DNA from: a virus
IMG/VR virus record: IMGVR_UViG_3300037189_003167
Span: 1 to 39,032 of that record
Strand: one strand, 5' to 3'
DNA length: 39,032 nt
Shown: positions 17,701 to 38,931 of the stretch, piece after piece
Layout of the letters: each line of letters starts with the position of its first letter
How positions within the stretch are numbered: the stretch's first letter is position 1
The notes under the pieces: model-generated
What the model saw: the letters and a program-made list of their open reading frames with translations, nothing else
The model's database searches: none
What the model was told of the DNA's origin: nothing
Translations under genes and position numbers: made by a program

Positions 17701-19445
17701 GGACGTTCAACATCGGCACCAGTAGTAACAATTTGACCTTGGTGCATCCATACTTTGATGGGCGTATTTTTTTCATTGGCTACTTCTTGCAACCTGCCAA
17801 CTTTGAAGTCAGCCAGTTCTTTTGTTCCTTGATAATCTTTACCCTTATACGTGGCATATGCCTCGTGGATTTTTTCAAGGTCGGTCTTTTCCGCCGGGGT
17901 TGCTGGAGGATTGGCCGGGGTTGCTGGAGGATTAAGCTCTGGTTGCTTGGGAGTAACAACTGGAGGTATAGCAGGACCGCCAGTAATTACTGGGGTTTCT
18001 GGTTCTGCTGGTCTTTGCGTTTCTGTTTGCTCGGCTTCAGGGGTTTCAATGCCACTTGGTTTTCCTTCGATTGCTGGTGGTTTAGGGAGGAGGTCAGTTA
18101 TATCTTGTGGCTGCTCAACAGTAACAGGTGTTACAGCAGGCGTACCAAGGATTTGATTGGCCTCATCAATCAGTTGCTGTTGGTCCTGGGACTCTTCGTC
18201 CGTGATCTCTTGCGGCGTCAATGTGGCAATGCCACCGGTTGGCGCGACGGGACCGGTTGGCGGGGTGACTTGGACCCCATCAATGTCAACACTACCATCA
18301 CTACGAGTTACCTTGATACTTGTTTTGCCACCCTGCTGCACGGTAGTCGTTGCAACGATAGGCGCGTTGGTTGGCGGAATAGGTGTAGCTGTTGGTAGAG
18401 AAGCCAGGCCACCTGGCGGGGTTTCCTCCGCTTCTTTGCGGCCAAATGCTACGTTGGTAGCGGCAGAGATACCAGCACCACCAAGACCACCTTTGAGTCC
18501 AGCATTGATAAAACGCTCAAAATTTTGCGCGGTAAAGAAGTCATTGTTACTGTCAACAAACTTTTCAGCAGCCGCACTGGACATTTCCTGGATGGCTTCA
18601 GTAGCACCCTCGGACACCATACCCTCAAGCGCACCTTTGCCTGCTCGTTTGTACCAAGCCCCAATGATTTCATTTTCAGGAATGCCAGCAAGCTTGGATT
18701 TACGCAGCAAATTAATGGGCGTAACAGCATCCAGGACGGAGTTAAATGCTCCAAATGCCAACGCCACTGGCAAGTTGTCGTAACCCTTTTCGTAAAGTCC
18801 TTGGTACACATCTGGGATGTTTTGAGCCGCAGAGCCAACCAATGCTCCGGCTACCTCGTACTTCAACGCTTCGCGCTTAGCTGCATCAACGCCCGCTTTA
18901 AGGGCAATGTCTTTGGCCGCTTCAGCGGTTACGCCTGCCGCCATACTGGTGGTTGCCGCCTTTTCCGCCGCAACTCTAGCAGCCGCTACAGCTCCACGGC
19001 CCGCAACTGCTGCTGCACCACCGGTAAACAAGCTTGGGATAAGAGTGGGGATTGCTTCACCAACAGCCTCAACAATGTACGTTAACGCATCACCAGCACC
19101 CTTGATGTTGGTAAACGAAGGTACAGCCGATGGATAGAGGGCTTCGGTTTCTTTTTGATACGCCGCAGCTTCTTTCATTTGCTGCTTGGCATAGTCATTG
19201 GCTCCAACAGCCTTCGCTATCATTGCGGGAGCAACATCCCCCGTAAGGGAAGCAAGGCCCCGGACACCACGCATTACCGCTGGGCCAAAAGCAGAAAAGC
19301 CAGTTTGAGGTTCGGGCGGAGCGGTAGCTACTTCTTCAGAAGCAATTGGCTGCGTATCAAGGTAGCTAAGAATTTTAGCTTTTGCAGCAGCCGGATCATC
19401 CGTTGAAATATCGTACTGCTGGCCCTTGTACTCATAAATTGGCAT
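5727..19445 (-). CDS. Giant polyvalent protein: methyltransferase-like plus Strawberry-notch helicase, DarB-like
   Basis: A 4572-residue protein (about 0.5 MDa), presumably packaged and injected with the DNA. In order: N-terminal MPIYEYKGQQYD module (1-32); small-residue hydrophobic segment (about 118-160); Pro/Glu/Ala-rich linkers (about 480-710) and an Ala/Lys/Glu coiled coil (793-835); an LPD1-like metalloprotease-type site, HEWQH (1259-1263); a methyltransferase-like domain with motif I DPTGGNG (1679-1685) and motif IV AHPPAS (1739-1744); a Gly/Ser-rich linker (about 1885-2030); and an SF2 Strawberry-notch helicase with GDDTGVGKGR (2279-2288), DEAH (2414-2417), SAT (2465-2467) and GRIHRTGQ (2861-2868). 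A second HExxH-type site, HEAIGH, lies at 3539-3544. The C-terminal region (about 4030-4300: NPVFGAFNFFRD, then a hydrophobic segment) resembles ejected internal virion proteins. Motif IV lacks the aromatic residue after PP, so methylation is doubtful. By analogy with P1 DarB, it may protect incoming DNA from restriction. Confidence 0.9.
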   Translation of the reverse strand: MPIYEYKGQQYDISTDDPAAAKAKILSYLDTQPIASEEVATAPPEPQTGFSAFGPAVMRGVRGLASLTGDVAPAMIAKAVGANDYAKQQMKEAAAYQKETEALYPSAVPSFTNIKGAGDALTYIVEAVGEAIPTLIPSLFTGGAAAVAGRGAVAAARVAAEKAATTSMAAGVTAEAAKDIALKAGVDAAKREALKYEVAGALVGSAAQNIPDVYQGLYEKGYDNLPVALAFGAFNSVLDAVTPINLLRKSKLAGIPENEIIGAWYKRAGKGALEGMVSEGATEAIQEMSSAAAEKFVDSNNDFFTAQNFERFINAGLKGGLGGAGISAATNVAFGRKEAEETPPGGLASLPTATPIPPTNAPIVATTTVQQGGKTSIKVTRSDGSVDIDGVQVTPPTGPVAPTGGIATLTPQEITDEESQDQQQLIDEANQILGTPAVTPVTVEQPQDITDLLPKPPAIEGKPSGIETPEAEQTETQRPAEPETPVITGGPAIPPVVTPKQPELNPPATPANPPATPAEKTDLEKIHEAYATYKGKDYQGTKELADFKVGRLQEVANEKNTPIKVWMHQGQIVTTGADVERPKGARLIGTINPVIEQKPETTAGPSIPAGGKPTEEQAPIEEPKNAPSEEAPPESPTDEAPAEAPAEESTEGAAPAEEAPTEVPTEEAPVEGTAPTEEGTETPATPTETTEEGAAPATPPAATPEEGGEKPAEGGTTAGPSTPAKTKQKQVWHILYKSGRQANGRAVNIDFDTEQEAKEHLNKNFTAPWEYKIKAKTIDVPVETTAGPAKPPKVKLTDEEKAKAAEEKKAADEAKAKAAEEKAAADKAEEERKKKLEEFNKQPMKVAMDEGDAAKVAELLYGKTVSEEFFPSMQTEGLIRIPVELKDVAAIETALKKYGFTINGADVFTSNDPSTPGPERVTISAVYKPEKVSIQGGGAEFIGNRKGKVTAPPVPKNPTDVAISKMLAAASKDALLDIHSNVNNSFGAMMYKEGLAHYLVTPADFLLQNLKSIGSLPITPKTQGPGAIKMALAQGKNTEVEMLLQYYVEALNGLQQVFNEHSRVDALNAAIKEKYIKDPYSGKLAERYTHDGVNLSSKFNNKNLDLVKLNDRLYSLFAANEDSTDQTKRIVKKDAEFPPTMERIIRRGMRDHRQGRPADVQDFIDTFGFFPGGIDFGNWVNQTERADHLNAIYDAMHDLADLSGISPKMLGLGQQLKLAVGAQGRGGRTAAHYIAKDNQGKWVNEINLTKTKGDGSLGHEWQHGLDFNLQRTENGKTLMEETASMLQAQMKLELVEETLRNILKNVSSTTENRNLPPKKALFAAITQGPYSQRPSIYSNATEDTQFARDARALDREENREPIYWASNKELLSRGFEAMLFDASKGGSPYLVGPAVADGYISKPNGYAGTAYPSGSERPILNEIFKQMLDQIDPETLKVKTYKAETRIVHIEELGYAILDQHNMGSRNGGSLFWYKNKQEAEDAMEYREGREEILTPYRLQIGKVNERILDIANRVDAIMDEMGLFKWPEIKNDSMSESMFNHMRQGWWPKSNRELIEYGIKAYLQKPELLGFNPIKDKREIDQYKIADFENDRVKLKQTQEDFEAAAVRYVAQIITDMRTTGSDTKAIYDHILGMYKNQPMLEIKSILSKTNNSYSTPMPIAFLAGMLARVKSTTTVLDPTGGNGMLVVSANPRNVTTFEIDPHRANNLQLMQFGKVVEGDATEEVAKLKNQEVDVVLAHPPASTLSSAINIKSWDGKEYKIGTLDQQIAAESLHAIANDGRAVLLVQAHPNMGTITSTDKQFLNWLYSNYNVADHFEIAGNLYHPQSASAPMRILVIAGRNQTENLYPTNFTVDRINTFDELWSRYVQTSNRSEKVVVGAGKKRPATGGANKPRGGVPTGDTLEDDENGAGLGIGEGAGVGEPLLTTGGGTGTSGTGGRGATGRNGSGQQQSDNGEGQSGGSGGVGSSGTEGGQGNGPGSGAELGGLPDLDDLLNFIDNLGDDETPKSKPRTAGPRTPRGDSTGKGGTRAPRAPKTTELPPEFQGNPEIEAILKGLDAAMKGTAPAETSKTTTAPNSQERLDSQTNDAARRTAQQAKDEKNNQGQYSRKGQHDYADVQPFIQQLWNALSGMVKDVKQRFLKIYQTLVQRYGNAIKEHLNTFAASLYTKEKKVPRNQTPVQGEPIDTASRVVYLGKSRFSNDGIYLPRAQSEYAYSALENLEAQVGDIDEFVAKELGYSSVEQMRQPTDDRNSGLAGYQVDGLALAIQANKLGKGFIIGDDTGVGKGRAAAAMLVWAKKNGKIPIFVTLNDSLYSAMYEDLTSIGHEDIKIGMTHTDGVITKDLGGGKSKPVFQNKGSDSKKLIEYITKNGALPKGMDALFTSYSQLNGGAGSPARQQAIASLVAAGKAVLVMDEAHNAAGVPSDDEDSMGQNAFFMSLLTGKNLLGKEKDAPDNWKPPSALYLSATFAKRPDNMPLYIHTNLRYAANTPEELTALFGKGVKTDVLQQVSSEMLVASGSMLRRERSYEGVKMNFFTDEENAPRDSREFDKVTNILRSLVNADRALKQWVKKHETQKMLVETFGGPEATFGTEGPNAFRGVSANPFTSVVHNYISDLLLSTKTQTTINMIVDNMNNGEKVVVGLKSTSGAALDDYVKKENIAVGSEIQNFGWQTMLQRAVNSTLRANLQSASKDPAKNKPIDIPVDALPGYVKEGYAKVAEMIKSFHSDLSAAPIDYIRAELQKKYVWNINGKVHVGDEAPAGVKARHLVVREITGRNNAIDYSGDVPKYITLNQPDRVQTISQFQDGEDSDKGPVDVLIINSAGATGISLHASVKAFDQRPRRMIVMQPHGDISVFIQLLGRIHRTGQVEWPSFTILATGIPAERRILAMLQKKLGSLKSNTSGGSSSTQIDTSVDFINQYGDVATSLYLNEHPEINEFLGAPKYANPEKAAGTDLAHKASGTAGLLSVVDQQEFFDSIEATYLADIELRNSTGTNALQRRVLPLNAEIIKENLIEEGLDNSNPFLADVVMAQFNVDVIGSTPTQQEIKDDIAQALNGRTSDQVVKEIDAELNTIFVEVRNQIILKQQALDASIADPESTEKDRAEFQKLKKALDEQFATLNDRRKKTIDALTYDFPIGQGFKKFEMHGVPASAVVIGIKVDKNRIGKSKTGNPYAPSNFQIILKRNIPDGRVAPTLATLEGKSIYKEGPTYFPPLDQWFALRSVTGGRTTRYIALGNILRAAQLFEFSGGEIAKFTLQDNKAVGSESELDKEKTSITGVVMPSRYKPLPVSAQPVRMRNAESSVQYVLAAWHEFLRQKYEDTQFDSYKQAADKVKPFLLDNLPDFGPFREANRYEATILRGMKNTWALTLDGYRPSNGFRVSLNKDVPSNFVEKAQLLVGKLPKTRNADYEMPSGYYIESPEKVIELVKFLHKNFPADVGASEAELARQVMKVEFQNNESKRGMLSRAVAEGGQSVEAVQSQLFPIEGITVNVVQSADNLPDDAAPSDVEGAWYSGTTVYLVADNLPNAKRVQEVLAHEAIGHAALESMLGPDMMKDLVKKIQTLEKNSGMIQKVAQHVDRTQPGLSAESRAKEIVAVMAERGLHKGLVQRVFQAVRNFLKKLGFTIQFSDGDVLALLRNAEKFVGGQFSPGGEGLYSVNYKGNPAPLASFQAPTELNKLDTFLYKYQDKHIDTKRILEIIQKQNVDIKDNWDPYLKEELYHGRVAKQTKDFIEDEFRPLLEDMNKRKITVLQFEEYLHNRHAKIRNAFIAERNQRPDMQDGGSGLFDTEVDDYMQDLDTQPELKKNFEELAEKVDAMVKETQDLMVSTGLEKQSTIDAYREKLPFYVPLKRDPDELEFVNASSGMGRGFNVKGSTSKAAIGSHKTVVNILGNLALEREKVVVRGEKALIGRALYALAIQNPNTNFWKPINPEAIKNKQKLIDEMLDMDMTLRDAENIIQESKTGRLDKQTGLVKYEINPMLRDSPNVLAVRINGEDRYVFFNPGNKTALRMVESLKNLDAAQMDGFIKQASAVTRFIAAVSTQYNPVFGAFNFFRDVQSAAINLSSTPIADKKFQVVNDSRSAVRAIYRNLRGKPATTPEMQKWMDLFEKYQNAGGATGFRDQFSKNDEKETLVERELGRLNRNNVKKAVDAVADWLSNYNDAMENAVRLSAFKAALDVPGMSVDRAASIAKNLTVNFNRKGASTQTIGALYAFFNAAVQGSARLAQTLVTRNADGKLRLSPAGMKIIAGGVLIGVAQTAILAMAGFGPDDPSEWIKEKNLIIPTGGGGYLTIPMPLGFNLFPNLGRVLSEYMMVQSGAMKGKRDIKKTVTYLATSILDTFNPLGSSTFAQTLTPTLVDPLVAVSENKDAFGRPISKEDRGLKPTPGYERSRDSANGLSQAIAYALNYVTGGGEKGIGLISPTADQLSYIAGQYTGGVGKLGIQSYEYAKSKITGDEVQSYQVPVAGKLYGDINTPAAISGKFYENLKDMSQHERIIKDMKGKGVAEYIKENPEAALRNRANYVENEIVRLKKEKKALVERNAPDEQIKRKDDRIKELMDNFNKSVIKLQ

Positions 19446-22214: not shown

Positions 22215-23894
22215 TTAAGCAGGTAAGTACTTAGCTGCGTTTGTATTGGCAGCAACATTTTTGGTTTTGCGGCGCGTCTTCTGGATGCGGTCCATCATTT
22301 CATACAGACGTTGAGCGCCAGCTTCTGTAGAGCCATTTCCAAGTTCAGACACAATCCGAGCCGGTATAACAAACTCACCCGTAGCAAGGCGGGCCGGTTG
22401 CTTTTGACCAATTATGGCAGGAATGGAATCAGAAACACCATCGCCCGGGCCTTTCAGCAAGCGCCCACCATCCGAGTAGGAGCCGAGATTTGATTGCCCA
22501 GGAATAGCGCCACCACTGTTAAAGCCCTGCATGGATGGACCATACAAACTTTGAAGCCCTGATGTTTGAGGCAGAGAGCTTTGAGTGATCCCGTTTTGCT
22601 CCACCCCGCCATCACGAGACGGGTATCCTTGAACAGGGTAGTTGTTACCTTGATCTGTGTTCAGTGAAATATTAAATTGCGGCGCTTCATTGCCAATCTC
22701 ACCGCCACTAGCAAGACCCATCAATCCACCCTTGGCTGCGGCCTGCACTGGGGTGTAAACCATAGGGCTGAAATAAGTGACCCCACCTTGACCTGGACGG
22801 TAGGGCTTTCCATCAATCCCAGCTCTTGTTTCGCTTACGGGCTTTTGCGTTCTAGAAGCTGTGTACTTCGGTACGGTTCCTTGGTAAGAGCTGTTTCCGC
22901 CGCCACCAGTCAATCCCTTCCCTAGAGCTACAGCGCCTGCTCCAACTCCTGCGGCCTTAAGTAGATCTGCAGCAGCCTTGGCATCTTTAAGTCCTTGAGC
23001 AATCTGTGCAGCGGTAAGGGAGGTGGCCGTGCCCACGCCAGAGGCAGCAGCCAGTGCATCTCCTGTTAACGCTCCGCTTGCAGCGCCAGCAGCGCCAGCA
23101 GAACCTGGACCCATGCCTGACGCGACCATCTCATTGATGGAAGGCACTGCAGATCCTGCGGCCCCCAAAGCACCCAGACCTGCGGAGCCAACCCCTCCTG
23201 CAGCAGCTAACGCCTCCCCCGTCAATACGCCACTTGCAGCACCTGCGGCACCAGCCGATCCAGGAGCCATGCCAGCCGCAATCATTTCATTGATAGATGG
23301 GACGGTAGAACCAAGAGAGCCAATGCCACCGGCAGAAGCGAGATCTGCAGCACCGGTAGTAGCTGCAAGTTCTGCCCCTGGTGCGCTACCAGCAGTAAGA
23401 ATCGACTCAATCCCAGATGCCCCGCCCTCCAAAGCACCCGAAGCTAAAGCATCACCCCCTCCTCCGCCTAGAAGCCCTTCACCACCAAAATTTGCACCCC
23501 CAAGTAGTGCCGCACCACCAGCAAGAATACCGGCGTTTAAAAGATTTTCACCATTCTTGTGAATAAATCTTGTTAAAAAATCTCCGCCACCGCCAGATTG
23601 ACCGACGCCAACAAATTTACCACTTGGGTCGTATTCGTTAAAAGTGCCGTCACCCAGATCTTTGGTAAAACCATTTGCTTCGTAGGACGCATCACTTGAT
23701 CCGCCCTGCCCAACACCACCACTTTGTTTAATATTGGGTATTAAAGCACCAGACTTAACCAGCTCCTGCATTTCTGGTGGAAGAGCAGAAATTGCCGCCT
23801 TAATAGCAGCCTCTCTACTTCCGTATCCACCACCCACATTTGGAGAGTAATTTACCGGTGTTTGAACCGGAACATAATCTGCGCGTCCTGGCAT
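22215..23894 (-). CDS. Ala/Gly-rich virion protein with GEFVIPA C-terminal motif (559 aa)
   Basis: An N-terminal segment (SREAAIKAAISALPPEMQELV) is followed by a Gly/Ala/Ser-rich region holding a tandem 52-residue duplication beginning VPSINEM. The C-terminus carries DGVSDSIPAIIGQKQPARLATGEFVIPARIVSELGNGST, a pattern widespread in phage tail or internal proteins (GDG-x-SDSIPA...GE-F-V-(I/V)-PA...LGNG). Ten hydrophobic Ala/Gly segments could insert in a membrane. A role in the DNA-ejection apparatus is likely from neighbours but not proven. Confidence 0.6.
   Translation of the reverse strand: MPGRADYVPVQTPVNYSPNVGGGYGSREAAIKAAISALPPEMQELVKSGALIPNIKQSGGVGQGGSSDASYEANGFTKDLGDGTFNEYDPSGKFVGVGQSGGGGDFLTRFIHKNGENLLNAGILAGGAALLGGANFGGEGLLGGGGGDALASGALEGGASGIESILTAGSAPGAELAATTGAADLASAGGIGSLGSTVPSINEMIAAGMAPGSAGAAGAASGVLTGEALAAAGGVGSAGLGALGAAGSAVPSINEMVASGMGPGSAGAAGAASGALTGDALAAASGVGTATSLTAAQIAQGLKDAKAAADLLKAAGVGAGAVALGKGLTGGGGNSSYQGTVPKYTASRTQKPVSETRAGIDGKPYRPGQGGVTYFSPMVYTPVQAAAKGGLMGLASGGEIGNEAPQFNISLNTDQGNNYPVQGYPSRDGGVEQNGITQSSLPQTSGLQSLYGPSMQGFNSGGAIPGQSNLGSYSDGGRLLKGPGDGVSDSIPAIIGQKQPARLATGEFVIPARIVSELGNGSTEAGAQRLYEMMDRIQKTRRKTKNVAANTNAAKYLPA
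22992..23303 (-). repeat. Tandem 156-bp in-frame duplication
   Basis: Two copies of a 52-codon unit (VPSINEM...PGSAGAAGAASG...LTG) start at 23303 and 23147 on minus, exactly 156 bases apart. The second copy diverges at its end. It duplicates an Ala/Gly-rich segment of the 559-residue virion protein. Confidence 0.75.
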
Positions 23895-30494: not shown

Positions 30495-32396
30495 TTAAGT
30501 GTTAACGTCTACCCATCCTGGGTCTTGAGGGTTGTTTACAGCATCCCAGCCTGGCGCTTGGGTATTGCTAACACCACCCCAATTTGAATTTTGATTGTTA
30601 CCAATGCCATTCCAGTTTGGATTCTGCGTGTTACCAACAGCACCCCAATTCGAAGCTTGCGTGTTGCTAACATCAGTCCAGTTTGATGTTTGGGTATTGC
30701 CAACAGCAGTCCAATTTGCTGTTTGCAAGTTGTTTATAGCACCCCAATTTGACGTCTGAGTGTTGCTAACATCGGTCCAATTCAAAGTTTGCATGTTGCT
30801 TACAGTGCTCCAACTTGACGTTTGCGCGTTACCAACATCATCCCAGCCAGGGGTTTGTGGTGTTGGTATCACCCTCCAGCCAACAGATACAACCTGACCA
30901 ATATAGCCGTTTGCATACGTCCCTGTAAGTGCCTGCGTTACAGCATAAGAGGCAAACCCAGACGCTGATCCTGATCCTACCACAGATGTAAGGCTTGGCG
31001 TTATTCCATACACTAGCGTTTGAAGGACTCCTGTAGAGGGGGCAGAGGTAAGCTCCGCACCCAAAGACATGGTTGTGTCTGAGGCATAGCCGGAGGCTGT
31101 GACTGCTGTTATGTCAAAAGTTATAGTTGTTGAAAATACAACAGTGCCCAGCAGCCCTGATGTAGCTACACCAGAAGTAGCTAAGGAAACCGCATATGCC
31201 GGAAAGGCTACTTGCCCGGCAGCACTTGTGTTTGAGATAGGTGATGTAAGCGCATACACCGGTGTAGCTGTTTGTCCGAGCGCGCTTGTGCCTGTAGTGG
31301 AATTGGTTAAAGCATAAATGGGTGTTGCGGCAAAACCAGATGCAATAACCCCGGTTGCATTTACCTGCACATCAGAAGCGTAGGTTTCAGTTCCCGCGAA
31401 ACCGCTCGCCGTATTATTGCCAAGGAGCGTTGAATAGGTGTACCTCGGGGTAGAGGAAAAACCAGATGCAGCTGTAGAAGTTATAGCTACACTCTTTGAA
31501 AAAACAAGTGCACCCAAACTGCCAGAGGCTGATGCGGATGTTAGAGCTACAGTTACAGTTGGGATTGGGGTGTAATTGATGATGATAATACTTGCACCAC
31601 CAGCTCCACCCGTTGAAATAACGGAAGAAGCACCACCGCCACCACCGCCGCCATAAGTTCCACCAGCACCGCCAACAGTAGTTCCTGTACCATCACCAGC
31701 ACCGCCCCCACCACCACCAGAGTAAACAGAAGTGCCATTTCCGCCCGCGCTACCTGAATTAGATGCGGCACCACCCGTACCTCCAGCGCCAGCGCCTGTT
31801 CCTGCAGTTCCGCCTGTTGCAGAGGTACTGGACCCAGCCGTTCCACCATTACCGCCTCCGCCGCCTCGACCTGTTGTCCCAAGTGTTGCAGTGTTTGCAC
31901 CACCTGCGCCGCCATTTCCATTAGGTCCAGCCGCACCACCACCTCCACCACCGGCAGCAGTAGTTGAAGTTCTTCCTAAACCGCCGTTACCACCAGCCCT
32001 TGAAATTGTAGTGTAAACAGCGCCAGCTATTTGAGCGCCGCCATACGGACCACCTTGACCACCATTTAAACCATTAGTGCCATTAGCCGCAAATACTAAA
32101 CTACCAATAATTGGTAATCCAGTGCAACCGTCAATCGCAACAACTCCATACCATAAATAGCCAGAGCTATAAATTTTGTCAATTACATATCCAGCGGCAT
32201 CTGCTGCTTTAAGCGGTACATTAGTTGCTAGTACGTATGCGCCGCCACCACCACCGGTACCTGAAAAAGCTGCATCTCCATTTCTTCCACTTCCTCCAGC
32301 ACCATATATTTCAATGGTATTTGCAGCGTCATTCCAATCAGCCGGAAGATTCCAAGATTGAGGAGTATTTGTTGGGTAAAGAATTATTTGCGCCAT
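30495..32396 (-). CDS. Modular tail-fibre protein: Gly-rich head, beta repeats, Trp repeats (633 aa)
   Basis: The N-terminus (QSWNLPADWNDAANTIEIYGAGGSG) is paralogous to that of the 380-residue fibre protein. Residues about 100-285 are Gly-rich. About 285-510 hold degenerate repeats of roughly 27-30 residues with SA-x-GQ/GF and TPVYALT motifs. The C-terminus has ten 11-residue repeats W-x2-(V/I)-x-N-x-Q-x3 and a partial one. Mosaic structure of this kind marks receptor-binding fibre genes that change by domain shuffling. It is coupled to the cupin gene upstream by TAATG. Confidence 0.7.
   Translation of the reverse strand: MAQIILYPTNTPQSWNLPADWNDAANTIEIYGAGGSGRNGDAAFSGTGGGGGAYVLATNVPLKAADAAGYVIDKIYSSGYLWYGVVAIDGCTGLPIIGSLVFAANGTNGLNGGQGGPYGGAQIAGAVYTTISRAGGNGGLGRTSTTAAGGGGGGAAGPNGNGGAGGANTATLGTTGRGGGGGNGGTAGSSTSATGGTAGTGAGAGGTGGAASNSGSAGGNGTSVYSGGGGGGAGDGTGTTVGGAGGTYGGGGGGGASSVISTGGAGGASIIIINYTPIPTVTVALTSASASGSLGALVFSKSVAITSTAASGFSSTPRYTYSTLLGNNTASGFAGTETYASDVQVNATGVIASGFAATPIYALTNSTTGTSALGQTATPVYALTSPISNTSAAGQVAFPAYAVSLATSGVATSGLLGTVVFSTTITFDITAVTASGYASDTTMSLGAELTSAPSTGVLQTLVYGITPSLTSVVGSGSASGFASYAVTQALTGTYANGYIGQVVSVGWRVIPTPQTPGWDDVGNAQTSSWSTVSNMQTLNWTDVSNTQTSNWGAINNLQTANWTAVGNTQTSNWTDVSNTQASNWGAVGNTQNPNWNGIGNNQNSNWGGVSNTQAPGWDAVNNPQDPGWVDVNT
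30498..30845 (-). repeat. Ten 33-bp repeats encoding W-x-x-V-x-N-x-Q units
   Basis: Tryptophan codons recur every 33 bases from 30845 down to about 30513, followed by a partial last unit (WVDVNT). Consensus: W, small or acidic pair, V/I, S/G/N, N, T, Q, T/N/A, S/P, N/G. It forms the extreme C-terminus of the fibre. Confidence 0.85.
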
Positions 32397-32683
32397 TATG
32401 CATTTACCATAATTCCTTGGTTTGGAACTATATTAACAATAATGGTTCCATCTTCCAAAGCTTCAATTTCATGCGCTGTATTTGCTGGCATTTCATAAAA
32501 CATGCCGCTTGGTATAACAAAAGAATTTTCATCAATTGTAATTTTGCAGGATCCAGTTTGGCATACAGTTCCATGAGAAAAAAGATGTGTATGCATTGGT
32601 ATACCTTCACCGGCATTAGCTTCATATATATTAATCACCACACCAAGGTATGTAATACTTGATAAGCGATTAGCAATACGCAT
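32396..32683 (-). CDS. Cupin-fold protein (95 aa)
   Basis: The cupin signature is visible in GEGIPMHTHLFSHGTVCQTGSCKITID (motif 1, H-x-H with glycine spacing; metal-ligand-like H31, H33 and perhaps H37) and PANTAHEIEALEDG (motif 2, H70). Such small barrels bind metals or sugars. Sitting between a decoration-type protein and tail fibres, it may be a sugar-binding or modifying virion component, or may simply be acquired cargo. Its ribosome site overlaps a hairpin (32689-32703). Confidence 0.6.
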   Translation of the reverse strand: MRIANRLSSITYLGVVINIYEANAGEGIPMHTHLFSHGTVCQTGSCKITIDENSFVIPSGMFYEMPANTAHEIEALEDGTIIVNIVPNQGIMVNA

Positions 32684-32710: not shown

Positions 32711-33187
32711 TTAGGTTGTAACCAAGCGCAGTAAAGCAGTCCCAGCCGCATTGGCAGGCATCGTGATGGTGATGTTCCCTGCAGTGATGGTCTGAGAGCC
32801 AAACGTGTGGACACTGACGGCCTTATTGGACTGGGTGGAGTTGTAGAGCAGCACAGTATCAAACGCCGTGCTAATCGTCACTGTAGTCCAAGTAAAGCTT
32901 GCAGACGGCGTCCAGTATCCTGTTCCTGCAGTAGTCGAGGTATTTGTTGATGCCGGGGCTGTTGCATTTGTTACTGTAGTACCGCCCGCTGTATAGCCCG
33001 TGCCAGAAACTTCACCAGTAGCTGAGTAGGCCGTAGTTGCTGCGTTTACAGTAGCTGTGGTGTAGTACAAGGCCGCCTTGAAGGTGTCTGCTGCGGTTGT
33101 TCCACGAGTAGGTGCAACGCCAAAATTATGCGTAGCAGTCATCAGTTCACCAAGGAACGAGGTACACATTGATTGGGTATTTGCCAT
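32711..33187 (-). CDS. Beta-rich virion protein, paralogue of the 138-aa gene (158 aa)
   Basis: The protein starts MANTQSMCTSFLGELMTATHN. AAGGA lies upstream. Shared with the 138-residue protein at 33385-33801 are SF...EL, a GYTAGGTT strand, YNS(T/S)(Q/K)SNKA, a FGS turn and ITMPAN near the C-terminus. The fold looks like a Thr/Ser-rich beta barrel, as in phage head-decoration or tail-shaft proteins. Its exact virion role is unknown. Confidence 0.65.
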   Translation of the reverse strand: MANTQSMCTSFLGELMTATHNFGVAPTRGTTAADTFKAALYYTTATVNAATTAYSATGEVSGTGYTAGGTTVTNATAPASTNTSTTAGTGYWTPSASFTWTTVTISTAFDTVLLYNSTQSNKAVSVHTFGSQTITAGNITITMPANAAGTALLRLVTT

Positions 33188-33196
33188 GATATTTCC

Positions 33197-33388
33197 TTAA
33201 ATGGTGCCAGCTTCGCCAGTAGTAAGCCCCGGCATCTTTTTCAGTGTTACATGAGCGGAACGATGAACAAGCTCATCGTCTAGCCAGTACTCTACCCAGG
33301 TTGTGTACTCATTTTCATTATCAACAACCCCTGCTTTCCTGTTAAGCAAAGAATCATCCATGTCGCCTTTAGTGGTGGTAACAATCAA
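33197..33388 (-). CDS. Small conserved phage protein, TTG start (63 aa)
   Basis: MIVTTTKGDMDDSLLNRKAGVVDNENEYTTWVEYWLDDELVHRSAHVTLKK... starting at TTG 33388, supported by GGAG seven bases upstream and by overlap of the TTG with the previous stop (TTGA). The VDNE-x-E-x-TTWVEYW-x-D-x-ELVHRS-x-H-V core is a short conserved pattern in uncharacterised podovirus genes beside decoration proteins. Confidence 0.65.
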   Translation of the reverse strand: MIVTTTKGDMDDSLLNRKAGVVDNENEYTTWVEYWLDDELVHRSAHVTLKKMPGLTTGEAGTI

Positions 33389-33801
33389 TTTGAACTCCGT
33401 ATTAATGCGGTGGTTGAGGTATTAGCTGGCATAGTAATCAAGAACGTAGTAGTTGAAGACTTGTCAGATCCAAAGTCAATAACAGCAATTGACTTATTAC
33501 TCTTGCTTGAGTTGTAAATTAAAGCGCAGCGGGCGGTGATAGACCCAGTCCAACTTGTGTTGGCAAAGTTTACATAAGCCGTGTATCCAGAGCTATTAAC
33601 TGTAACACCTGTTAGTGTGTTTCCACCAGCCGTATACCCGGAAGCTACAACCTCATTGGAAGTTGTGTACACAGTAGTGTCTGGTCCAATATTGGCATTA
33701 CCTGTGTACAGCGCAATCTTGATATTATCTGTCAACAGGTTATGCACAGCCTGGTACAGCTCTTCTTTGAAGCTGGTGGTTTGGGTTTGAATGATAGCCA
33801 T
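33385..33801 (-). CDS. Beta-rich virion protein (138 aa)
   Basis: MAIIQTQTTSFKEELYQAVHNLL... A paralogue of the gene at 32711-33187 (same GYTAGG, YNSSKSNK and ITMPAN blocks), shorter by 20 residues. The start overlaps the adaptor gene stop (TGATG). Likely a decoration, head or tail surface protein, assigned only by composition and position. Confidence 0.65.
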   Translation of the reverse strand: MAIIQTQTTSFKEELYQAVHNLLTDNIKIALYTGNANIGPDTTVYTTSNEVVASGYTAGGNTLTGVTVNSSGYTAYVNFANTSWTGSITARCALIYNSSKSNKSIAVIDFGSDKSSTTTFLITMPANTSTTALIRSSN

Positions 33802-34463
33802 CAGTTAACCTTCGCCCTTAGTTGACCACTGCGATAGGCATCCTGGCGCTCCATACCATCACCCAGACGTTTAGCAAGCGCAAGTGCTTCCATGTACTTT
33901 TGGTTGTACAGGGTAATCATGTCGGCCTCACCCTTCATGTAGGTGTAAGCCTCAACCAGAGCACCATACAAAAGCACCGAGTCAAAGTTATCGCCAAGCC
34001 AAGTTGTGGAGGCGGTAGTGATTGACTCTGGGTAATAGTAGTAATGCAGCTCCGTGCTATATACAGCGTCCGGGGTTGGCCCAAGAATCAGTGTCAACTC
34101 ATTGGTTATAGTTCCAGAGTTTACGGTTGGGCCAAAAATTGCGTAATACTTTGGAGTGCCCGTGCTTGCTGGGTTTGGATATGCTTCACGCATGAAGTTA
34201 ACATCTTTGTTGAGTAAGTATGTGTAACTTCCACCAGCCTGGGGATAGATTGCCAAAGAGTAAGGTGCCAGGAAATCATCTGGGCAGGAAATATACTTGT
34301 TGCCGGATGTGATTGCTCCCGTTACGTTTTTACGCAACGAGGGGAACTGAACTGAGTTATAGATGCGTTGCTCTGCCTGCGTAATAAACAGGTTTACATC
34401 CACCGTTTCAAAGGTGTTCTCCGTGTAATCGGAAATCGCAACTACAAGCGCAGCGTAGTTCAT
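33801..34463 (-). CDS. Head-tail adaptor-like protein (220 aa)
   Basis: ATG 34463 gives MNYAALVVAISDYTENTFETVD, coupled to the previous stop by ATGA. The first 60 residues fit the short helical bundle of phage adaptor proteins (NYA-x-L-x-x-x-I-x-DYTEN...FIT-x-AEQRIYN). A beta insert (ISCPDDFLAPYSLAIY) and a C-terminal helix (LLYGALVEAYTYMKGEADMITLYNQKY) complete the pattern. The protein probably sits under the portal and links the head to the tail. Confidence 0.65.
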   Translation of the reverse strand: MNYAALVVAISDYTENTFETVDVNLFITQAEQRIYNSVQFPSLRKNVTGAITSGNKYISCPDDFLAPYSLAIYPQAGGSYTYLLNKDVNFMREAYPNPASTGTPKYYAIFGPTVNSGTITNELTLILGPTPDAVYSTELHYYYYPESITTASTTWLGDNFDSVLLYGALVEAYTYMKGEADMITLYNQKYMEALALAKRLGDGMERQDAYRSGQLRAKVN

Positions 34464-34741
34464 GCCATCGGACCTCTGGACATTGTGCCTTTGGTAGCGC
34501 AACCAGTACCGCGCATTTTGATGCCGGAGGTTTTGATTGGCTCATTGCCAGCAGACTTACTGATGTTGCCAACGCTCACATCAATATTCTCAAGCTTGCT
34601 TTTGTTGGGAGGAAAGCCGGGGTTGGTTCCAAACTCCACCGGTGCCTGGGTCATTTTCTTGCCAGACATGGTGTGCGGCTGCGCGTACACATCAGCAGAA
34701 CCAACCTCTTTGCCCATCATTTTTTTACTAAATGTAGCCAT
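34460..34741 (-). CDS. Small basic virion protein with GCATKG-type motif (93 aa)
   Basis: The protein starts MATFSKKMMGKEVGSADVYAQPHT. The C-terminus, GIKMRGTGCATKGTMSRGPMA, resembles the ADGIA-x-KGKT motif of three genes further right (see findings) and is common in small phage virion-type proteins. Unknown function, basic, probably disordered in part. Confidence 0.6.
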   Translation of the reverse strand: MATFSKKMMGKEVGSADVYAQPHTMSGKKMTQAPVEFGTNPGFPPNKSKLENIDVSVGNISKSAGNEPIKTSGIKMRGTGCATKGTMSRGPMA

Positions 34742-34749
34742 GATTGACC

Positions 34750-34941
34750 TTACTTTTGATTGTTTGCACGGGCCATGTTGCGGCCAACAGCTCGCATAGC
34801 TTTACCGGTGACGCCACCTTTTTTGAGTTTCAAGGAAGTGCCTTTGCCGCCCTTGTGCTCTTGAGCGTCATGCTGCTTGAATGCTTTTTTGATCATGGCT
34901 TTGTCTTGCGCCATGTCCATCTTCATGTTTTCTTTAGCCAT
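34750..34941 (-). CDS. Small Lys/Gly-rich protein (63 aa)
   Basis: MAKENMKMDMAQDKAMIKKAF...KLKKGGVTGKAMRAVGRNMARANNQK. KGG followed by a helical GRNMARA end is typical of tiny basic phage proteins packaged with DNA or built into the head-neck; a DNA contact is inferred from charge only. Confidence 0.6.
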   Translation of the reverse strand: MAKENMKMDMAQDKAMIKKAFKQHDAQEHKGGKGTSLKLKKGGVTGKAMRAVGRNMARANNQK

Positions 34942-34950: not shown

Positions 34951-35340
34951 CTACGAAACCGTTACTGTTACTGTACCAACACTTGTGGTTCCAACCAAGT
35001 AATTGGGCGTTAAGGTTGCATCAAATTGGCTGGAACCACCAACTGGATTCCAACCCCATTGAATATCACGAGATCCACCAGTATTAAATCCGGAAGTGTT
35101 AAGACCGGCGGAAACATAGGTTGTATCTGGCCTTGGTTGATACACTGCTTGTGGATCATTAACTGGGTACATGCCCAATTGAAGCTGCGGCTGGTCTGGA
35201 TCCCAGCATACTTCACACACCTTCAATTGATACAGTTTAGTCTTTATAACCTCAATCTTCAACTGCTTAAGCTTGAAACGCTGGCCGCACCTATCACACT
35301 CGGCAATCGAGTATTTGCCTGATGCGTATGGAGAAGCCAT
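34951..35340 (-). CDS. Zinc-ribbon virion protein (129 aa)
   Basis: The protein starts MASPYASGKYSIAECDRCGQRF. Two CXXC pairs (C-D-R-C at 15-18, C-E-V-C at 42-45) make a zinc ribbon, followed by WDPDQPQLQL. The second half is Gly/Thr/Asn-rich and ends in a beta strand. The same layout (YASG...CDRCG...VC-x-x-C-W-(D/E)-P-x-x-PQ) occurs in small phage structural proteins. Coupled to the adaptor gene at 35340 by TAATG. Confidence 0.65.
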   Translation of the reverse strand: MASPYASGKYSIAECDRCGQRFKLKQLKIEVIKTKLYQLKVCEVCWDPDQPQLQLGMYPVNDPQAVYQPRPDTTYVSAGLNTSGFNTGGSRDIQWGWNPVGGSSQFDATLTPNYLVGTTSVGTVTVTVS

Positions 35341-36269
35341 TAATAGCCGCCACCAATGTATGCAATTCTTGGAGCAAGCCGCAACGTAGCTTTTTCATGG
35401 TCTTCGCCAGCAGCCAGCTTAAATTGCTCATCATAAACAGCCTTCAACATATCAAGGCGGTTCTGAAACTCAGGAACCTTCATGGCTATGTAGTAGGCCA
35501 AGCCAGCCGTAACAGCAGGCAGGAACCTGAAATTCATATCGGCAGTGTTGCTACCATCCCCAGCATCCTGAACCCGACGCAGGCGGTAGTACACAAACTG
35601 GTATGTCTGAGATCCATCTGGCGTAGGCCACACCGTTATGGCCGGGAGCTGTGGAACACTAACAGCAGCGCCAGCCGTATGAGATGCTGCGGTGGTATTG
35701 TTCTGACCACGAAACACTCCGCCAAGCGTGTTACCTGAGATGTAGGTGTAGTAAATGTCCTCTGAGTCCAGGCGGATGTAGCCAGACCCGGCAAGCCCAA
35801 CAACTGTACTGAGTGTTATAGACGTATCCGTGGAGGAGATGGTTGAGCTAAGCGTTGCGCTGGTAGGGTTCACCTGGCCTGAAAGACGCTGTATCCATAC
35901 TTGGATTGGACGCCCTTGAGTCAACTTGTTGGGGATTGTTGCGTAAGTGGATACGCTAATCCTGGTAATGCTCAAATCGGATTGAGTGGATGCTACGTTG
36001 GGCTGAGTACGGATCACATGATCAAGTAGATCAATCGTGTCTGTAGGTAGCGCATACGTATTCAAGCCCTGGGTCAAGGTTATGGTCCCAGTCTCAATCG
36101 TCCACATGTTTAACCCGCGATTGGCCCACTCAATGGTCATAAGGTTCATTGACCTACGTGCAGTACGCAAGTCATAACCAGACCTCATCTCGCGGCCAGC
36201 TCTCTCCCAGGCTTCTTCAGCAAGTTCTACAAACTCAAGATTGAAGGCGGTGGAGCCGGAGGTGGTCAT
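35340..36269 (-). CDS. Larger head-tail connector-like protein (309 aa)
   Basis: The protein starts MTTSGSTAFNLEFVELAEEAWERAG. The N-terminal helices, LRTARRSMNLMTIEWANRGLNMW, followed by TITLTQGLNTYALPTDTIDLLDHV and a C-terminal YQFVYYRLRRVQDAG, match a common podovirus connector-type protein often placed near adaptor genes (P22 gp4-like in pattern). A central Gly/Thr-rich beta section is interposed. It probably joins the tail or stabilises packaged DNA. No tail tape-measure is nearby. Confidence 0.6.
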   Translation of the reverse strand: MTTSGSTAFNLEFVELAEEAWERAGREMRSGYDLRTARRSMNLMTIEWANRGLNMWTIETGTITLTQGLNTYALPTDTIDLLDHVIRTQPNVASTQSDLSITRISVSTYATIPNKLTQGRPIQVWIQRLSGQVNPTSATLSSTISSTDTSITLSTVVGLAGSGYIRLDSEDIYYTYISGNTLGGVFRGQNNTTAASHTAGAAVSVPQLPAITVWPTPDGSQTYQFVYYRLRRVQDAGDGSNTADMNFRFLPAVTAGLAYYIAMKVPEFQNRLDMLKAVYDEQFKLAAGEDHEKATLRLAPRIAYIGGGY

Positions 36270-36493: not shown

Positions 36494-36727
36494 TTACTTC
36501 TTTGCAGTTTTTGCTGAATCAATGAATGCTTGATCTGTGGGTGCGCCTTTAGCGCCTGGCTTACGCATCTTTGCTCCACGTTTCCGCTTGGCGTTAATGT
36601 TGGCGTACAAACCAACCGGACCACCTTTTGCGTACTCCGTGAAGTCAGTGTTGTCACGGCGGGCAACCTTCCTGGCTGATGGCATTTTAGAGGGATTGAT
36701 GTCCCCCATGCCGCGACTGGCTCTCAC
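36494..36727 (-). CDS. Very basic MRASRGMGD-type virion protein, GTG start (77 aa)
   Basis: GTG 36727 overlaps the previous stop (GTGA), giving MRASRGMGDINPSKMPSARK, then YAKGGPVGLYANINAKRKR and KPGAKGAPTDQAF. This sequence type is widespread among phage virion-associated proteins. Strongly positive charge and KGG suggest contact with DNA or assembly inside the head. Confidence 0.7.
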   Translation of the reverse strand: MRASRGMGDINPSKMPSARKVARRDNTDFTEYAKGGPVGLYANINAKRKRGAKMRKPGAKGAPTDQAFIDSAKTAKK

Positions 36728-37083
36728 TTGCGACCCCTAGCCATGCCGCCACCACACATAACCATCGTGCCCTTTGTCTTGCCACGTTGAGCAATACCAT
36801 CAGCGCGTCTGGATGCGGTCATGCCGCCCTTGGCGTAGGTATCACCCATAGCGTTAGTTTTGCTGTCGCTGGTAGCGGCGTCAGGGTTTTTAGGACGACT
36901 TGCTACTCCGTAGTTGACGGCATTGCCAGAATTTTTTAATTTACCAGCTATTCCATATTTTGTTTGCGGAGTGCTTTTTTGCACAGGCTTTCCATCCACA
37001 CGGATCAAGCTTTCGTAATCCTCAAACTTTGTATTTTTGGATCCAACTGGCTCATCCACGTTTTGGGGGGTAGCGTTTGCCAT
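36724..37083 (-). CDS. Basic virion-type protein with ADGIA-GKT motif (119 aa)
   Basis: The protein starts MANATPQNVDEPVGSKNTKFED. It has an acidic/hydrophilic N-terminal half and ends YAKGGMTASRRADGIAQRGKTKGTMVMC, then GGGMARGRK. The C-terminal segment is shared with the two genes to its right. No catalytic residues are seen. Confidence 0.65.
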   Translation of the reverse strand: MANATPQNVDEPVGSKNTKFEDYESLIRVDGKPVQKSTPQTKYGIAGKLKNSGNAVNYGVASRPKNPDAATSDSKTNAMGDTYAKGGMTASRRADGIAQRGKTKGTMVMCGGGMARGRK

Positions 37084-37085
37084 GA

Positions 37086-37538
37086 TTAACACATCTTTCC
37101 ACGAGTTTTACCTTTGGTGGCAATACCATCAGCTCTGCGTGATGCGGAACTAACAGCTCCTCCAGACTTAAACCCAAATGCCGAACGAAATCGTTCATTT
37201 ACGGAACGCGAATCAGTGGTTCCTTCACGAGATTTGTTTTTTGCAGCCTTTAGACGATCATTAACCGACATTTGAGTTACATCAGTTGGGGTGGAGGTGC
37301 TTGCAGGCGCTTTGTATTTACTACCTTCATTTGAATAATTTGAAGTATAGGTTTTAGCCGCTGGCTTAGCTGCTGGTTTGGGTTTTTTAACAGCAGGTTT
37401 ATTTTCGGATGCCGCTGGACTATAAGCTTTCAGAGCGGAAGTATCATCCTCTTGATCAGCGGCTGCTTTTTGCGCTGCAATGGCATCTTCAACTCCAGCC
37501 ATTTCATCATAGTCATCATAATTTGATTGAGTAGCCAT
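37086..37538 (-). CDS. Virion-type protein with ADGIA-GKT motif (150 aa)
   Basis: ATG 37538 is coupled to the previous stop (TAATG). N-terminal acidic section (SNYDDYDEMAGVEDAIA), Lys/Pro/Ala-rich linker, then NDRLKAAKNKSREG and the C-terminal SRRADGIATKGKTRGKMC tag. Low-complexity and probably disordered. Function unknown. Confidence 0.65.
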   Translation of the reverse strand: MATQSNYDDYDEMAGVEDAIAAQKAAADQEDDTSALKAYSPAASENKPAVKKPKPAAKPAAKTYTSNYSNEGSKYKAPASTSTPTDVTQMSVNDRLKAAKNKSREGTTDSRSVNERFRSAFGFKSGGAVSSASRRADGIATKGKTRGKMC

Positions 37539-37933
37539 TAGCACTTCCCGCCTTTCTTCATAACAATTTGTTTGGTTGTAGTTTTGCCTTTGGTTGCAAC
37601 GCCATCAGCACTTTTGTGGCCAGCAGCCAATCCGCCGCCAGCCATCTTTTTAGTAGCGCCACCTTTTTTCATGCCAGGAGCCATAGCCGGAGCTGCAGGC
37701 ATCGGGCGCTTCATAGGGGCGCGAGAAGCAGCAGCCTTAGCAGCCATCATTTGCATTACGCGAGGATCCATTTTTGTAGCCATAGTATCACCACCTTTAG
37801 AGAATTTTTTGCCTTTATCGGCATTGTTAAAGTCTTGCCCCACGGACTGTGAGACTCCTACTTTCTTGGCAAAAGCAGGGCTATGGGCCACAGCAGCCAT
37901 GAAATTGTGTTGCTTCTTACTAACCGAAGGCAT
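37538..37933 (-). CDS. MPSVSKKQHNFM-type basic virion protein (131 aa)
   Basis: The N-terminus, MPSVSKKQHNFMAAVAHSP, is a familiar start of small phage and plasmid proteins (DUF3008-like pattern with AFAKKVG...DF). A repeated KGG/KKGGATKKMAGG region follows, ending SADGVATKGKTTTKQIVMKKGGKC. The same ADG(I/V)A-x-KGKT motif recurs in the next two genes. Confidence 0.65.
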   Translation of the reverse strand: MPSVSKKQHNFMAAVAHSPAFAKKVGVSQSVGQDFNNADKGKKFSKGGDTMATKMDPRVMQMMAAKAAASRAPMKRPMPAAPAMAPGMKKGGATKKMAGGGLAAGHKSADGVATKGKTTTKQIVMKKGGKC

Positions 37934-37934: not shown

Positions 37935-38735
37935 TTACTTCATTCCAACTTGCTGCATCAAATTGTTGGATTGCAGTGGTTGCAAGGGTTGAGTCATAGG
38001 TCCACTCAAATTCATGGGAGGATTGCTTGGAGTACCCTGCATGGTATTTTGAAATTTACCCAAGCTCATAGGAGGAGAGCCTCCATATTGGGAAGGTTGC
38101 ATTCCAGGTTGTGGAGATGGCTGGTTTAATCCAAAATCCATACCCGGCTGCATGGGCTGCATTGGTTGAGTTAAACGATCACCATAATTTGCAGGCTGCA
38201 TGGGCTGCATTGGTTGGTCATTTGGACCAAGACCATACAACTGCTGCTCAGAAAGTTTTTTCTGCAGTTCTTGCTGGCTTAAACCTGGCTTCATTTCGGG
38301 TTGTTGACCCGCTGTTTTTTGCATTTGCTGGTATTGCATCATTGCAGCGTATTGTGCTGCCTTTGCTTTTTCCTGGTCATTGCTAAACATATCCAGGCCA
38401 GTGCCAGCGGATTTTGGCATCAGTCCAGGCATCATCTCAGGTTGTGGAGTTTGACCCAAAAATGTGGTACCAGGACGCTGCTGCTCTTGTTGTTGAGCTT
38501 GACGCAAAAACTGTTGGTAACCTTGAGGGTTAGCAGCGATGGCGCGTGGATCAATACCTGGAGGGAGCATACCAAAGTGACTGCCACCAAAATGACCATG
38601 ATGCTGGTTCATAAAACCACGCAAGCTTGGAGGAGATGGGCGCATCTGCGTGGTCGTTGCTGGCTGAGCAACTTGAGGCATACCACGGTTAATGTTGGTA
38701 AGCTTATCGTAGGGGCTTGGTGGAACCATTGCCAT
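37935..38735 (-). CDS. Gln/Pro/Met-rich low-complexity protein (266 aa)
   Basis: ATG 38735 (MAMVPPSPYDKLTN) is preceded by AAGGAT. The longer frame upstream has no ribosome site. Strongly Gln/Met/Pro-rich with QPMQPMQP tandem units; a 23-base direct repeat (38146-38168 and 38194-38216) underlies these. A long charged stretch with no enzymatic motif. Probably a scaffold, linker or accessory virion component. Confidence 0.55.
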   Translation of the reverse strand: MAMVPPSPYDKLTNINRGMPQVAQPATTTQMRPSPPSLRGFMNQHHGHFGGSHFGMLPPGIDPRAIAANPQGYQQFLRQAQQQEQQRPGTTFLGQTPQPEMMPGLMPKSAGTGLDMFSNDQEKAKAAQYAAMMQYQQMQKTAGQQPEMKPGLSQQELQKKLSEQQLYGLGPNDQPMQPMQPANYGDRLTQPMQPMQPGMDFGLNQPSPQPGMQPSQYGGSPPMSLGKFQNTMQGTPSNPPMNLSGPMTQPLQPLQSNNLMQQVGMK

Positions 38736-38745
38736 GATGTATCCT

Positions 38746-38931
38746 TTATTTTTTGCGTCGGATGAGGTCAACAAAGTCTTTACCGGTCACCATCTCAGCG
38801 ATACGCATGACCGCAAGAATTGCTCCGATAAGGCCAAACACCGGCGAAATGAACTCAAGAAACGCACCAATTGCTGCTATAGGAGCAAGAATGTCGATGG
38901 CGTTTTTAAGGGTGTCGTGATGTTCAGTCAT
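38746..38931 (-). CDS. Small membrane protein (61 aa)
   Basis: MTEHHDTLKNAIDILAPIAAIGAFLEFISPVFGLIGAILAVMRIAEMVTGKDF... One or two hydrophobic helices between residues about 13 and 45 and a basic C-terminus (LIRRKK). Small proteins of this layout occur in phages upstream of structural genes and are sometimes called holin-like. A three-helix holin is already present elsewhere, so this may be a second one or a virion membrane peptide. Confidence 0.6.
   Translation of the reverse strand: MTEHHDTLKNAIDILAPIAAIGAFLEFISPVFGLIGAILAVMRIAEMVTGKDFVDLIRRKK

What the first reader, a model, noticed from the sequence alone, without database searches (positions are those of the whole stretch)
36724..37933. 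A shared ADGIA-x-KGKT tag on three successive virion-type proteins
Proteins of 131, 150 and 119 residues differ in their N-terminal parts but end with SADGVATKGKT, RADGIATKGKT and RADGIAQRGKT; a fourth gene at 34460 has GTGCATKGTM. A common C-terminal tag on unrelated bodies suggests a packaging or assembly signal that delivers different cargo into the particle.
Basis: partly seen in the sequence, partly recalled or inferred. Interest (0 to 1): 0.6.

Follow-up and report, generated by a model that had tools for sequence, protein, structure and literature searches.

The report
Shared terminal tag on phage head-region proteins
A group of freshwater phages ends many otherwise unrelated small proteins, made from one gene cassette between the capsid and neck genes, with the same short peptide, which most likely works as a docking label that recruits them to the growing virus particle; if so, it is a new, testable 'luggage tag' for phage cargo.

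Summary
Window ORFs 37538-37933, 37086-37544 and 36724-37092 (minus strand) carry near their C-termini a GG-rich linker plus (S/R)ADG(I/V)AxxGKT. It is far more than chance and far wider than this window. In 171 loci I found 455 tags, about 90% within 20 residues of the stop, on bodies that fall into 126 BLAST clusters. A set retrieved by capsid protein instead of by tag gave 77 tags on 45 body clusters, all downstream of the capsid gene.

Synonymous sites are scrambled between tags of one genome while the peptide is kept, so selection acts on the peptide. The tag is a clean, optional extension: it is present or absent after the same DUF6321 domain, and replaced by another tail on the same body in an isolate. 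It also occurs at the N-terminus of one family. It is tied to one capsid lineage (40 of 41 loci) and one cassette between capsid/cement and neck adaptor.

Best explanation: a portable virion-recruitment tag, working like T4's capsid targeting sequence or encapsulin cargo-loading peptides, but not a member of either. Recruitment itself is inferred; nobody has shown a tagged protein in a virion. The fourth gene cited (34460) is a single conserved family, not the tag.

The parts
37538..37933 (-). Tagged protein 1, 131 aa. N-terminal 'SKKQHNFM' domain (phrog_16759, as in phiKZ 165.1), low-complexity middle, then the tag
   Evidence: (phrog_16759 E=7e-22; also N-termini of 'virion structural protein' phrog_22033 and phrog_25121); body cluster 0
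37580..37612 (-). Tag 1: SADGVATKGKT, preceded by GGGLAAGHK and followed by TTKQIVMKKGGKC-end
   Evidence: sequence
37086..37544 (-). Tagged protein 2, 150 aa (ATG) or 152 aa (GTG), low-complexity body
   Evidence: body cluster 4
37104..37136 (-). Tag 2: RADGIATKGKT followed by RGKMC-end
   Evidence: sequence
36724..37092 (-). Tagged protein 3, 119 aa (ATG) or 122 aa (GTG), predicted disordered along its whole length
   Evidence: mean pLDDT 54.7, pTM 0.10; body cluster 7
36775..36807 (-). Tag 3: RADGIAQRGKT followed by KGTMVMCGGGMARGRK-end
   Evidence: sequence
36494..36727 (-). Cassette gene without tag: 77-aa RGMG/GLYANI protein; homologue lies beside DUF6321 between scaffold and capsid genes in T7-like marine phages
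   Evidence: (phrog_16028, phrog_11180); marker
35340..36269 (-). Neck adaptor (SU10_adaptor, annotated Pam1-type in relatives), downstream border of the main cassette
   Evidence: PF24175 E=2e-9; 96 of 96 tag loci
34750..34941 (-). 63-aa protein: tagless homologue of the N-terminally tagged ~61-aa family; same C-terminal half (GRNMARANNQ), different N-terminal half
34460..34741 (-). 93-aa protein ending RGTGCATKGTMSRGPMA; NOT a carrier of the shared tag (single-body family)
37935..38774 (-). 279-aa Met/Gln/Pro-rich untagged protein at the upstream end of the cassette
   Evidence: no Pfam or PHROG match

Best explanation
The motif (KGG-linker + S-A-S-x-R-A-D-G-[IVC]-A-x-[KR]-G-[KH]-T-[KR]-G) is a short, portable terminal peptide read by a partner protein in the head of one phage lineage. 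Small, mostly disordered, basic proteins from the cassette between cement and neck adaptor are captured through it during head assembly and so enter the virion, most likely the head interior, where they could act on packaged DNA or be delivered to the host. SHOWN computationally: one tag on many unrelated bodies; almost always terminal; gained, lost and exchanged as a unit; purifying selection on the peptide and not on the DNA; confined to one late cassette and to one capsid lineage; tag predicted unstructured even behind a folded domain. INFERRED: that the tagged proteins are in the virion; that the tag is sufficient for recruitment; that the receptor is the capsid, scaffold or portal of that lineage; interior rather than exterior location.
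For: Bodies: 126 clusters from 415 distinct tagged proteins; 105 representatives align with 7% mean column identity, yet the tag D, G, G and T are invariant. Position: 410 of 455 tags lie within 20 aa of the C-terminus and 22 at the N-terminus of a ~61-aa family. Modularity: the tag follows the terminal W-N-C of DUF6321 in 29 proteins and is absent from 43; homologous bodies in L118 and phage DSL-LC04 (E=5e-27) carry different tails. Selection: within-genome tag pairs (484) agree 0.81, 0.82 and 0.44 at codon positions 1, 2 and 3; same-codon fraction 0.477 against 0.464 expected; pN/pS of tag 0.22-0.32 against 0.40-0.72 for bodies in 9 of 10 clusters. Place: in 25 long records (23-65 kb) the significant matches sit in one stretch of at most 4.7 kb; 40 of 41 tag loci with enough upstream DNA have an MCP at 81% identity or more, and 96 of 96 with enough downstream DNA have the adaptor. 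Unbiased set: 77 tags, all downstream of the MCP, in 20 of 23 MCP-to-adaptor loci, 45 body clusters. Up to six consecutive tagged genes with six bodies (L105). Virion link: the N-terminal domain of the 131-aa protein heads CBB_322, detected in CBB virions with 30 peptides (PMC5259590).
Against: No virion proteomics of any phage that carries the tag was found; the virion link runs through another domain in a distant jumbo phage. No structural, binding or packaging data. Lineage restriction is also what a lineage-specific gene family without a receptor would show. Loci were mostly retrieved with tag queries, which inflates tag conservation; the MCP-retrieved set and the synonymous-site test reduce this problem but do not remove it. 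The DUF6321 cluster is as conserved as its tag (pN/pS 0.20 against 0.23). Relatives with capsids 62-63% identical (DSL-LC04, HTVC023P) have equivalent small genes without this tag, so the tag is not needed for the head type as a whole.
Confidence: 0.5

Rival explanations
1. The tag is a basic nucleic-acid-binding tail: the small proteins coat or condense phage DNA (or mRNA), and the tag binds phosphate through Lys, Arg and backbone amides without a dedicated protein receptor.
For: Tag net charge about +22 per 100 residues against +5 for bodies; neighbours (DUF6321, GLYANIH proteins) are basic and head-linked. In T4 heads only lysines of the internal proteins contact DNA phosphates (PMC3012670).
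Against: Charge alone does not explain near-invariant D, A, I/C/V and T, nor G, G and T at fixed spacing in 415 distinct proteins, nor the strict link to one capsid lineage.
Confidence: 0.2
2. The tag acts during assembly but is not a virion label: it recruits small assembly factors to the scaffold, to the phage GroES or to the portal, or protects them from proteolysis, and they are absent from mature particles.
For: The head operon encodes its own GroES and a probable scaffold; bodies are largely disordered, which suits transient factors.
Against: Very fast turnover of bodies under a constant tag is unusual for essential assembly factors; the domain shared with virion protein CBB_322 argues for a particle component.
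Confidence: 0.15
3. The tag anchors decoration proteins on the OUTSIDE of the head or at the neck, comparable to Hoc-like or fibre anchors.
For: The cassette follows the cement gene and a 944-aa virion structural protein (phrog_5838 family) and precedes the neck adaptor.
Against: Bodies are short, basic, low in hydrophobics (21%) and predicted disordered, with no fibre or carbohydrate-binding domain; basic disordered tails suit the DNA-filled interior better.
Confidence: 0.1
4. The shared sequence is a DNA-level repeat that serves recombination and gene shuffling in the cassette, and the peptide is incidental.
For: The cassette is clearly shuffled and its modules recombine.
Against: Tags within one genome share codons no more than codon usage predicts (0.477 against 0.464) while the peptide is kept.
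Confidence: 0.02
5. GxxxxGKT is a Walker A nucleotide-binding loop, so the proteins are small P-loop NTPases.
For: G-I-A-Q-R-G-K-T fits the literal pattern GxxxxGK[ST].
Against: No P-loop family match in Pfam; no Walker B or fold; motif is 5-20 residues from the C-terminus, sometimes at the N-terminus; predicted unstructured; natural variants read GHT.
Confidence: 0.01

Closest known systems
T4 capsid targeting sequence (CTS) of the internal proteins and Alt
   Same: One short conserved terminal peptide on a highly diverse set of small proteins that are packaged in the head; the CTS encapsidates them into the scaffolding core and will package foreign proteins (PMC3012670).
   Different: The T4 CTS is N-terminal and is removed by the prohead protease (own knowledge); here the tag is mostly C-terminal, has a different sequence and a different head type, and no peptidase was recognised among head genes. 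Packaging is unproven here.
Encapsulin cargo-loading peptides (CLP)
   Same: Short, usually C-terminal peptide of about 10 residues, in some cargo N-terminal, shared by unrelated cargo encoded near an HK97-fold shell gene, and sufficient for loading (PMC7355545). The phage tag shows the same C- or N-terminal freedom and sits beside a capsid gene.
   Different: The shell here is a phage major capsid protein in a genome with terminase and portal, not an encapsulin; the tag differs in sequence; shell binding is untested.
DUF6321 (PF19846), DUF5872 (PF19197), GLYANIH and SKKQHNFM small basic proteins of aquatic phages and jumbo phages
   Same: These bodies or their homologues sit in the same cassette; DUF6321 and SKKQ proteins are among the tagged bodies.
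   Different: They are known families found without the tag in hundreds of phages (527 records for DUF6321); the tag is an added extension restricted to one capsid lineage.
Planktothrix phage Pag-Yong1 / Synechococcus phage MinM2
   Same: Sequenced relatives (MCP 70% identical). In Pag-Yong1, UMO75986.1 (308 aa), two genes upstream of the adaptor, ends ...YASGGMIGRDGCAKRGRTKGRFI (E=1.5e-8). MinM2 and Pra-JY27 have the same genome length and the same MCP match.
   Different: Only one tagged gene, against typically 2 to 5 in the uncultured freshwater clade.

Membership tests
T4-type capsid targeting sequence | Short conserved terminal peptide shared by otherwise unrelated proteins | tested here: met
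T4-type capsid targeting sequence | N-terminal position | tested here: not met
   410 of 455 tags C-terminal, 22 N-terminal
T4-type capsid targeting sequence | Removed by a phage prohead protease during maturation | tested here: inconclusive
   No peptidase match in Pfam among TerL-to-cement genes of L175; the MCP has partial matches to PHROGs named 'head maturation protease', apparently through capsid regions of fused proteins
T4-type capsid targeting sequence | Tagged proteins are inside the virion; tag sufficient for packaging | not testable with these tools
   needs virion proteomics or fusion experiments
Encapsulin cargo-loading peptide | Cargo genes adjacent to the gene of an HK97-fold shell | tested here: met
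   MCP matches Phage_capsid_4 and Mu gpT families; first tag a median 2.3 kb after the MCP. The HK97 fold is inferred from these families.
Encapsulin cargo-loading peptide | Shell is an encapsulin (no terminase or portal) | tested here: not met
   terminase and portal present
Encapsulin cargo-loading peptide | Peptide binds the inner shell surface | not testable with these tools
   no complex prediction available; no PDB chain matches the tag profile
P-loop NTPase (Walker A) | GxxxxGK[ST] in a P-loop fold with Walker B | tested here: not met
   literal pattern only; no family match, disordered, terminal, GHT variants
Pam1/HTVC023P-type head gene module | Gene order terminase, portal, GroES, scaffold, capsid, cement, small genes, SU10/Pam1-type adaptor | tested here: met
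   126 and 45 body clusters; 7% mean column identity

The most novel reading that the evidence does not exclude
A position-independent cargo-loading peptide for a phage head: an abundant freshwater phage lineage carries a rapidly changing set of small proteins (1 to 6 per genome, over a hundred body families) that are loaded into the head through one conserved terminal peptide and delivered to the host, analogous to but independent of the T4 internal-protein system.
Probability: 0.3. Interest if true: 0.85.

Novelty: new variant of a known kind. Interest (0 to 1): 0.62.

Why it matters
Phages bring proteins into the cell with their DNA, but in most phages there is no sequence rule for recognising such cargo. 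A portable terminal tag, if it is a loading signal, would allow cargo to be predicted by sequence search in a common group of uncultured freshwater phages, point to a fast-changing pool of candidate host-directed proteins, and give a handle for loading chosen proteins into phage heads. Even if packaging is wrong, one peptide kept under selection on many unrelated bodies in a single cassette needs an explanation, and a relative in culture (Pag-Yong1) makes it testable.

Tried and rejected
tblastn of the bare tag or of the 122-aa protein against 50,697 phage records found essentially nothing: too short and low-complexity; profile searches worked. No PDB sequence match for tag, 131-aa protein, capsid or adaptor. 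Foldseek of the DUF6321 model against the PDB gave no match, as expected for a model of pLDDT 62. P-loop NTPase: rejected (GHT variants, no fold, terminal). Shared full-length fold: rejected. Recombination repeat: rejected. The 34460 gene as a fourth tag carrier: rejected (single-body family). The S-CREM1 virion proteome paper does not list ORFs in its text, so it could not show whether its DUF6321 protein is in virions. Literature searches for this tag, DUF6321 or DUF5872 as virion components gave nothing useful. L091 is the one tag locus with enough upstream DNA but no matching capsid gene (a 559-aa frame in an 8.6-kb contig of a Patulibacter MAG); it looks odd and I put no weight on it.

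Full report
WHAT IS THERE. The window is a 39,032-base virus record (IMG/VR); a 62.7-kb record is 99% identical at the query protein (L001). On the minus strand three consecutive, overlapping genes (37538-37933, 37086-37544, 36724-37092) encode 131-, 150- and 119-aa proteins (ATG starts) with near-identical peptides close to their C-termini: SADGVATKGKT, RADGIATKGKT and RADGIAQRGKT. Shuffling the three proteins never approached the observed three-way similarity (28 against a maximum of 17).

HOW WIDE IT IS. In 171 loci I counted 455 tags: 410 within 20 residues of the C-terminus, 22 at the N-terminus of a separate ~61-aa family (MAYTKSADGIAKKGKT...), 23 others, mostly 21-34 residues from the end. 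After removal of tag and linker, 415 distinct proteins fall into 126 BLAST clusters, most of them singletons. Aligning 105 representatives gives 7% mean column identity with invariant D, G, G and T in the tag and near-invariant GG upstream. Locus L105 has six consecutive tagged genes with six different bodies.

CONTROL FOR ASCERTAINMENT. Because those loci were mostly found through the tag, I repeated retrieval with the major capsid protein. Of 23 loci running from capsid to adaptor, 20 carry at least one tag under the pattern used; all 77 tags lie downstream of the capsid gene, none upstream, on 45 body clusters. Under a narrower pattern, three loci (L208, L239, L276) looked untagged. Reading them showed a GHT form of the tag in two (RGDGIASKGHTRGKMV in L208, RADGCVTKGHTKGKFV in L239) and a degenerate form in the third.

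THE TAG IS AN OPTIONAL, EXCHANGEABLE EXTENSION. DUF6321 proteins (PF19846) normally end in W-N-C or W-K-C; in these loci 43 end there and 29 continue with a GG linker and the tag or a near variant. The ~61-aa family has either the tag or a different N-terminal half on the same C-terminal half; the window's 34750-34941 gene is a tagless member. The body of L118 3784-4110 matches a DSL-LC04 protein (E=5e-27) that ends with another basic tail, TSKGQGRVIRSKKTRIC.

SELECTION ACTS ON THE PEPTIDE. For 484 within-genome tag pairs, identity at codon positions 1, 2 and 3 is 0.81, 0.82 and 0.44; where the residue is the same, codons agree in 0.477 of cases against 0.464 expected from usage. So the tags are not recent DNA copies or recombination repeats. 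Within body clusters pN/pS of the tag is 0.22-0.32 and of the body 0.40-0.72, except in the conserved DUF6321 cluster (0.23 and 0.20). The absolute tag values are biased by retrieval; the synonymous scrambling is not.

STRUCTURE. AlphaFold gives the window 119-aa protein no structure (pLDDT 54.7, pTM 0.10). For a tagged DUF6321 protein it gives a moderately confident helical domain (block means 60-81) and a disordered tag (residues 86-107 below 50). Bodies are small (median 109 aa), 70% disorder-promoting residues and 21% hydrophobics, and basic; the tag is more basic (+22 per 100 residues). Apart from DUF6321, only two isolated weak Pfam hits appear among 105 tagged representatives.

GENOMIC PLACE. 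In 25 records of 23-65 kb the significant tag matches lie in one stretch of at most 4.7 kb. Gene order is constant: terminase, portal, a 65-aa gene, GroES, probable scaffold, two genes, capsid, cement, often a large virion protein, then the cassette, then the adaptor. Of tag loci with at least 6.5 kb upstream, 40 of 41 have a capsid protein at 81% identity or more, and 96 of 96 with at least 3.5 kb downstream have the adaptor. Sequenced relatives with this head type include Pag-Yong1/MinM2 (capsid 70% identical, one tagged gene in Pag-Yong1), DSL-LC04 and HTVC023P (62-63%, none).

LINK TO VIRIONS. The first 46 residues of the 131-aa protein are a known small domain (phrog_16759; PHIKZ165.1; also between portal and capsid genes of Stenotrophomonas phage BUCT555). 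The same domain begins the 847-aa CBB_322 (E=2e-9), which was found in purified CBB virions with 30 unique peptides and 43.6% coverage (PMC5259590). DUF6321 and GLYANIH genes lie together between scaffold and capsid genes in T7-like marine phages. This supports a particle function for cassette proteins but is indirect.

INTERPRETATION. The pattern (constant terminal peptide, quickly changing bodies, late head-neck cassette, one capsid lineage, N- or C-terminal freedom) is what a recruitment tag would look like. T-even internal proteins are described as a highly diverse set sharing only a capsid targeting sequence (PMC3012670), and encapsulin cargo-loading peptides are short, mainly C-terminal but sometimes N-terminal, and sufficient for loading (PMC7355545). 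The phage tag works like these by analogy; it is a member of neither (position and sequence differ from the CTS; the shell is not an encapsulin). I put 0.5 on recruitment into the virion, most likely the interior; 0.2 on a receptor-less nucleic-acid-binding tail; 0.15 on a non-virion assembly role; 0.1 on exterior or neck anchoring.

LIMITS. Gene starts were chosen by a simple rule, so body lengths are approximate. BLAST clustering of low-complexity bodies overestimates the number of truly unrelated families; 126 should be read as 'many', not as an exact count.

Noticed in passing
window 5727-19445 (-): A single 4572-aa ORF, apparently a giant polyvalent-type protein (helicase-like and methyltransferase-like stretches by eye); such phage proteins are predicted to be packaged and injected (PMC5512222). 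It does not end with the tag.
   Followed up: no
L083 13659-14003 and L191 near 3843: A second kind of basic terminal tail, RGxG(R/K)V(I/M)...(R)KKT(R/K), in DSL-LC04 (replacing the tag on a homologous body) and in phage 023Pt_psg01; possibly an alternative tag class.
   Followed up: partly
L080 2211-2693 and window 34750-34941: The module AQDKAMIKKAFKQHDxQEHKGGKGTSLKL occurs both in the middle of a tagged SKKQ protein (L080) and as the N-terminal half of the window's untagged 63-aa protein: short modules, not only tags, are shuffled in the cassette.
   Followed up: partly
window 22215-23894 (-): 559-aa protein with a C-terminal stretch GPGDGVSDSIPAIIGQKQPARLATGEFVIPARIVSELGNGSTEAGAQRLYEMMDRI that looks like a recurrent module; KGG/GGG repeats resemble the linker before the tag.
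   Followed up: no
window 33385-33801 and 32711-33187 (-): Two neighbouring paralogues of phrog_644 (unknown function) downstream of the tail-type gene 33801-34502.
   Followed up: partly
window 32396-32683 (-): A 95-aa protein that looks like a small cupin, inside the structural region.
   Followed up: no
window 30495-32396 (-): 633-aa glycine-rich protein whose C-terminal part is built of repeats of the type SNTQTSNWTDV.
   Followed up: no
window 34460-34741 (-) and homologues: A 93-aa family with its own strongly conserved C-terminus RGxGAATKGxMxRGPMA (137 family members in these loci, plus 5 cases on a second body); resembles the tag in place and composition but sits almost always on one body.
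   Followed up: partly
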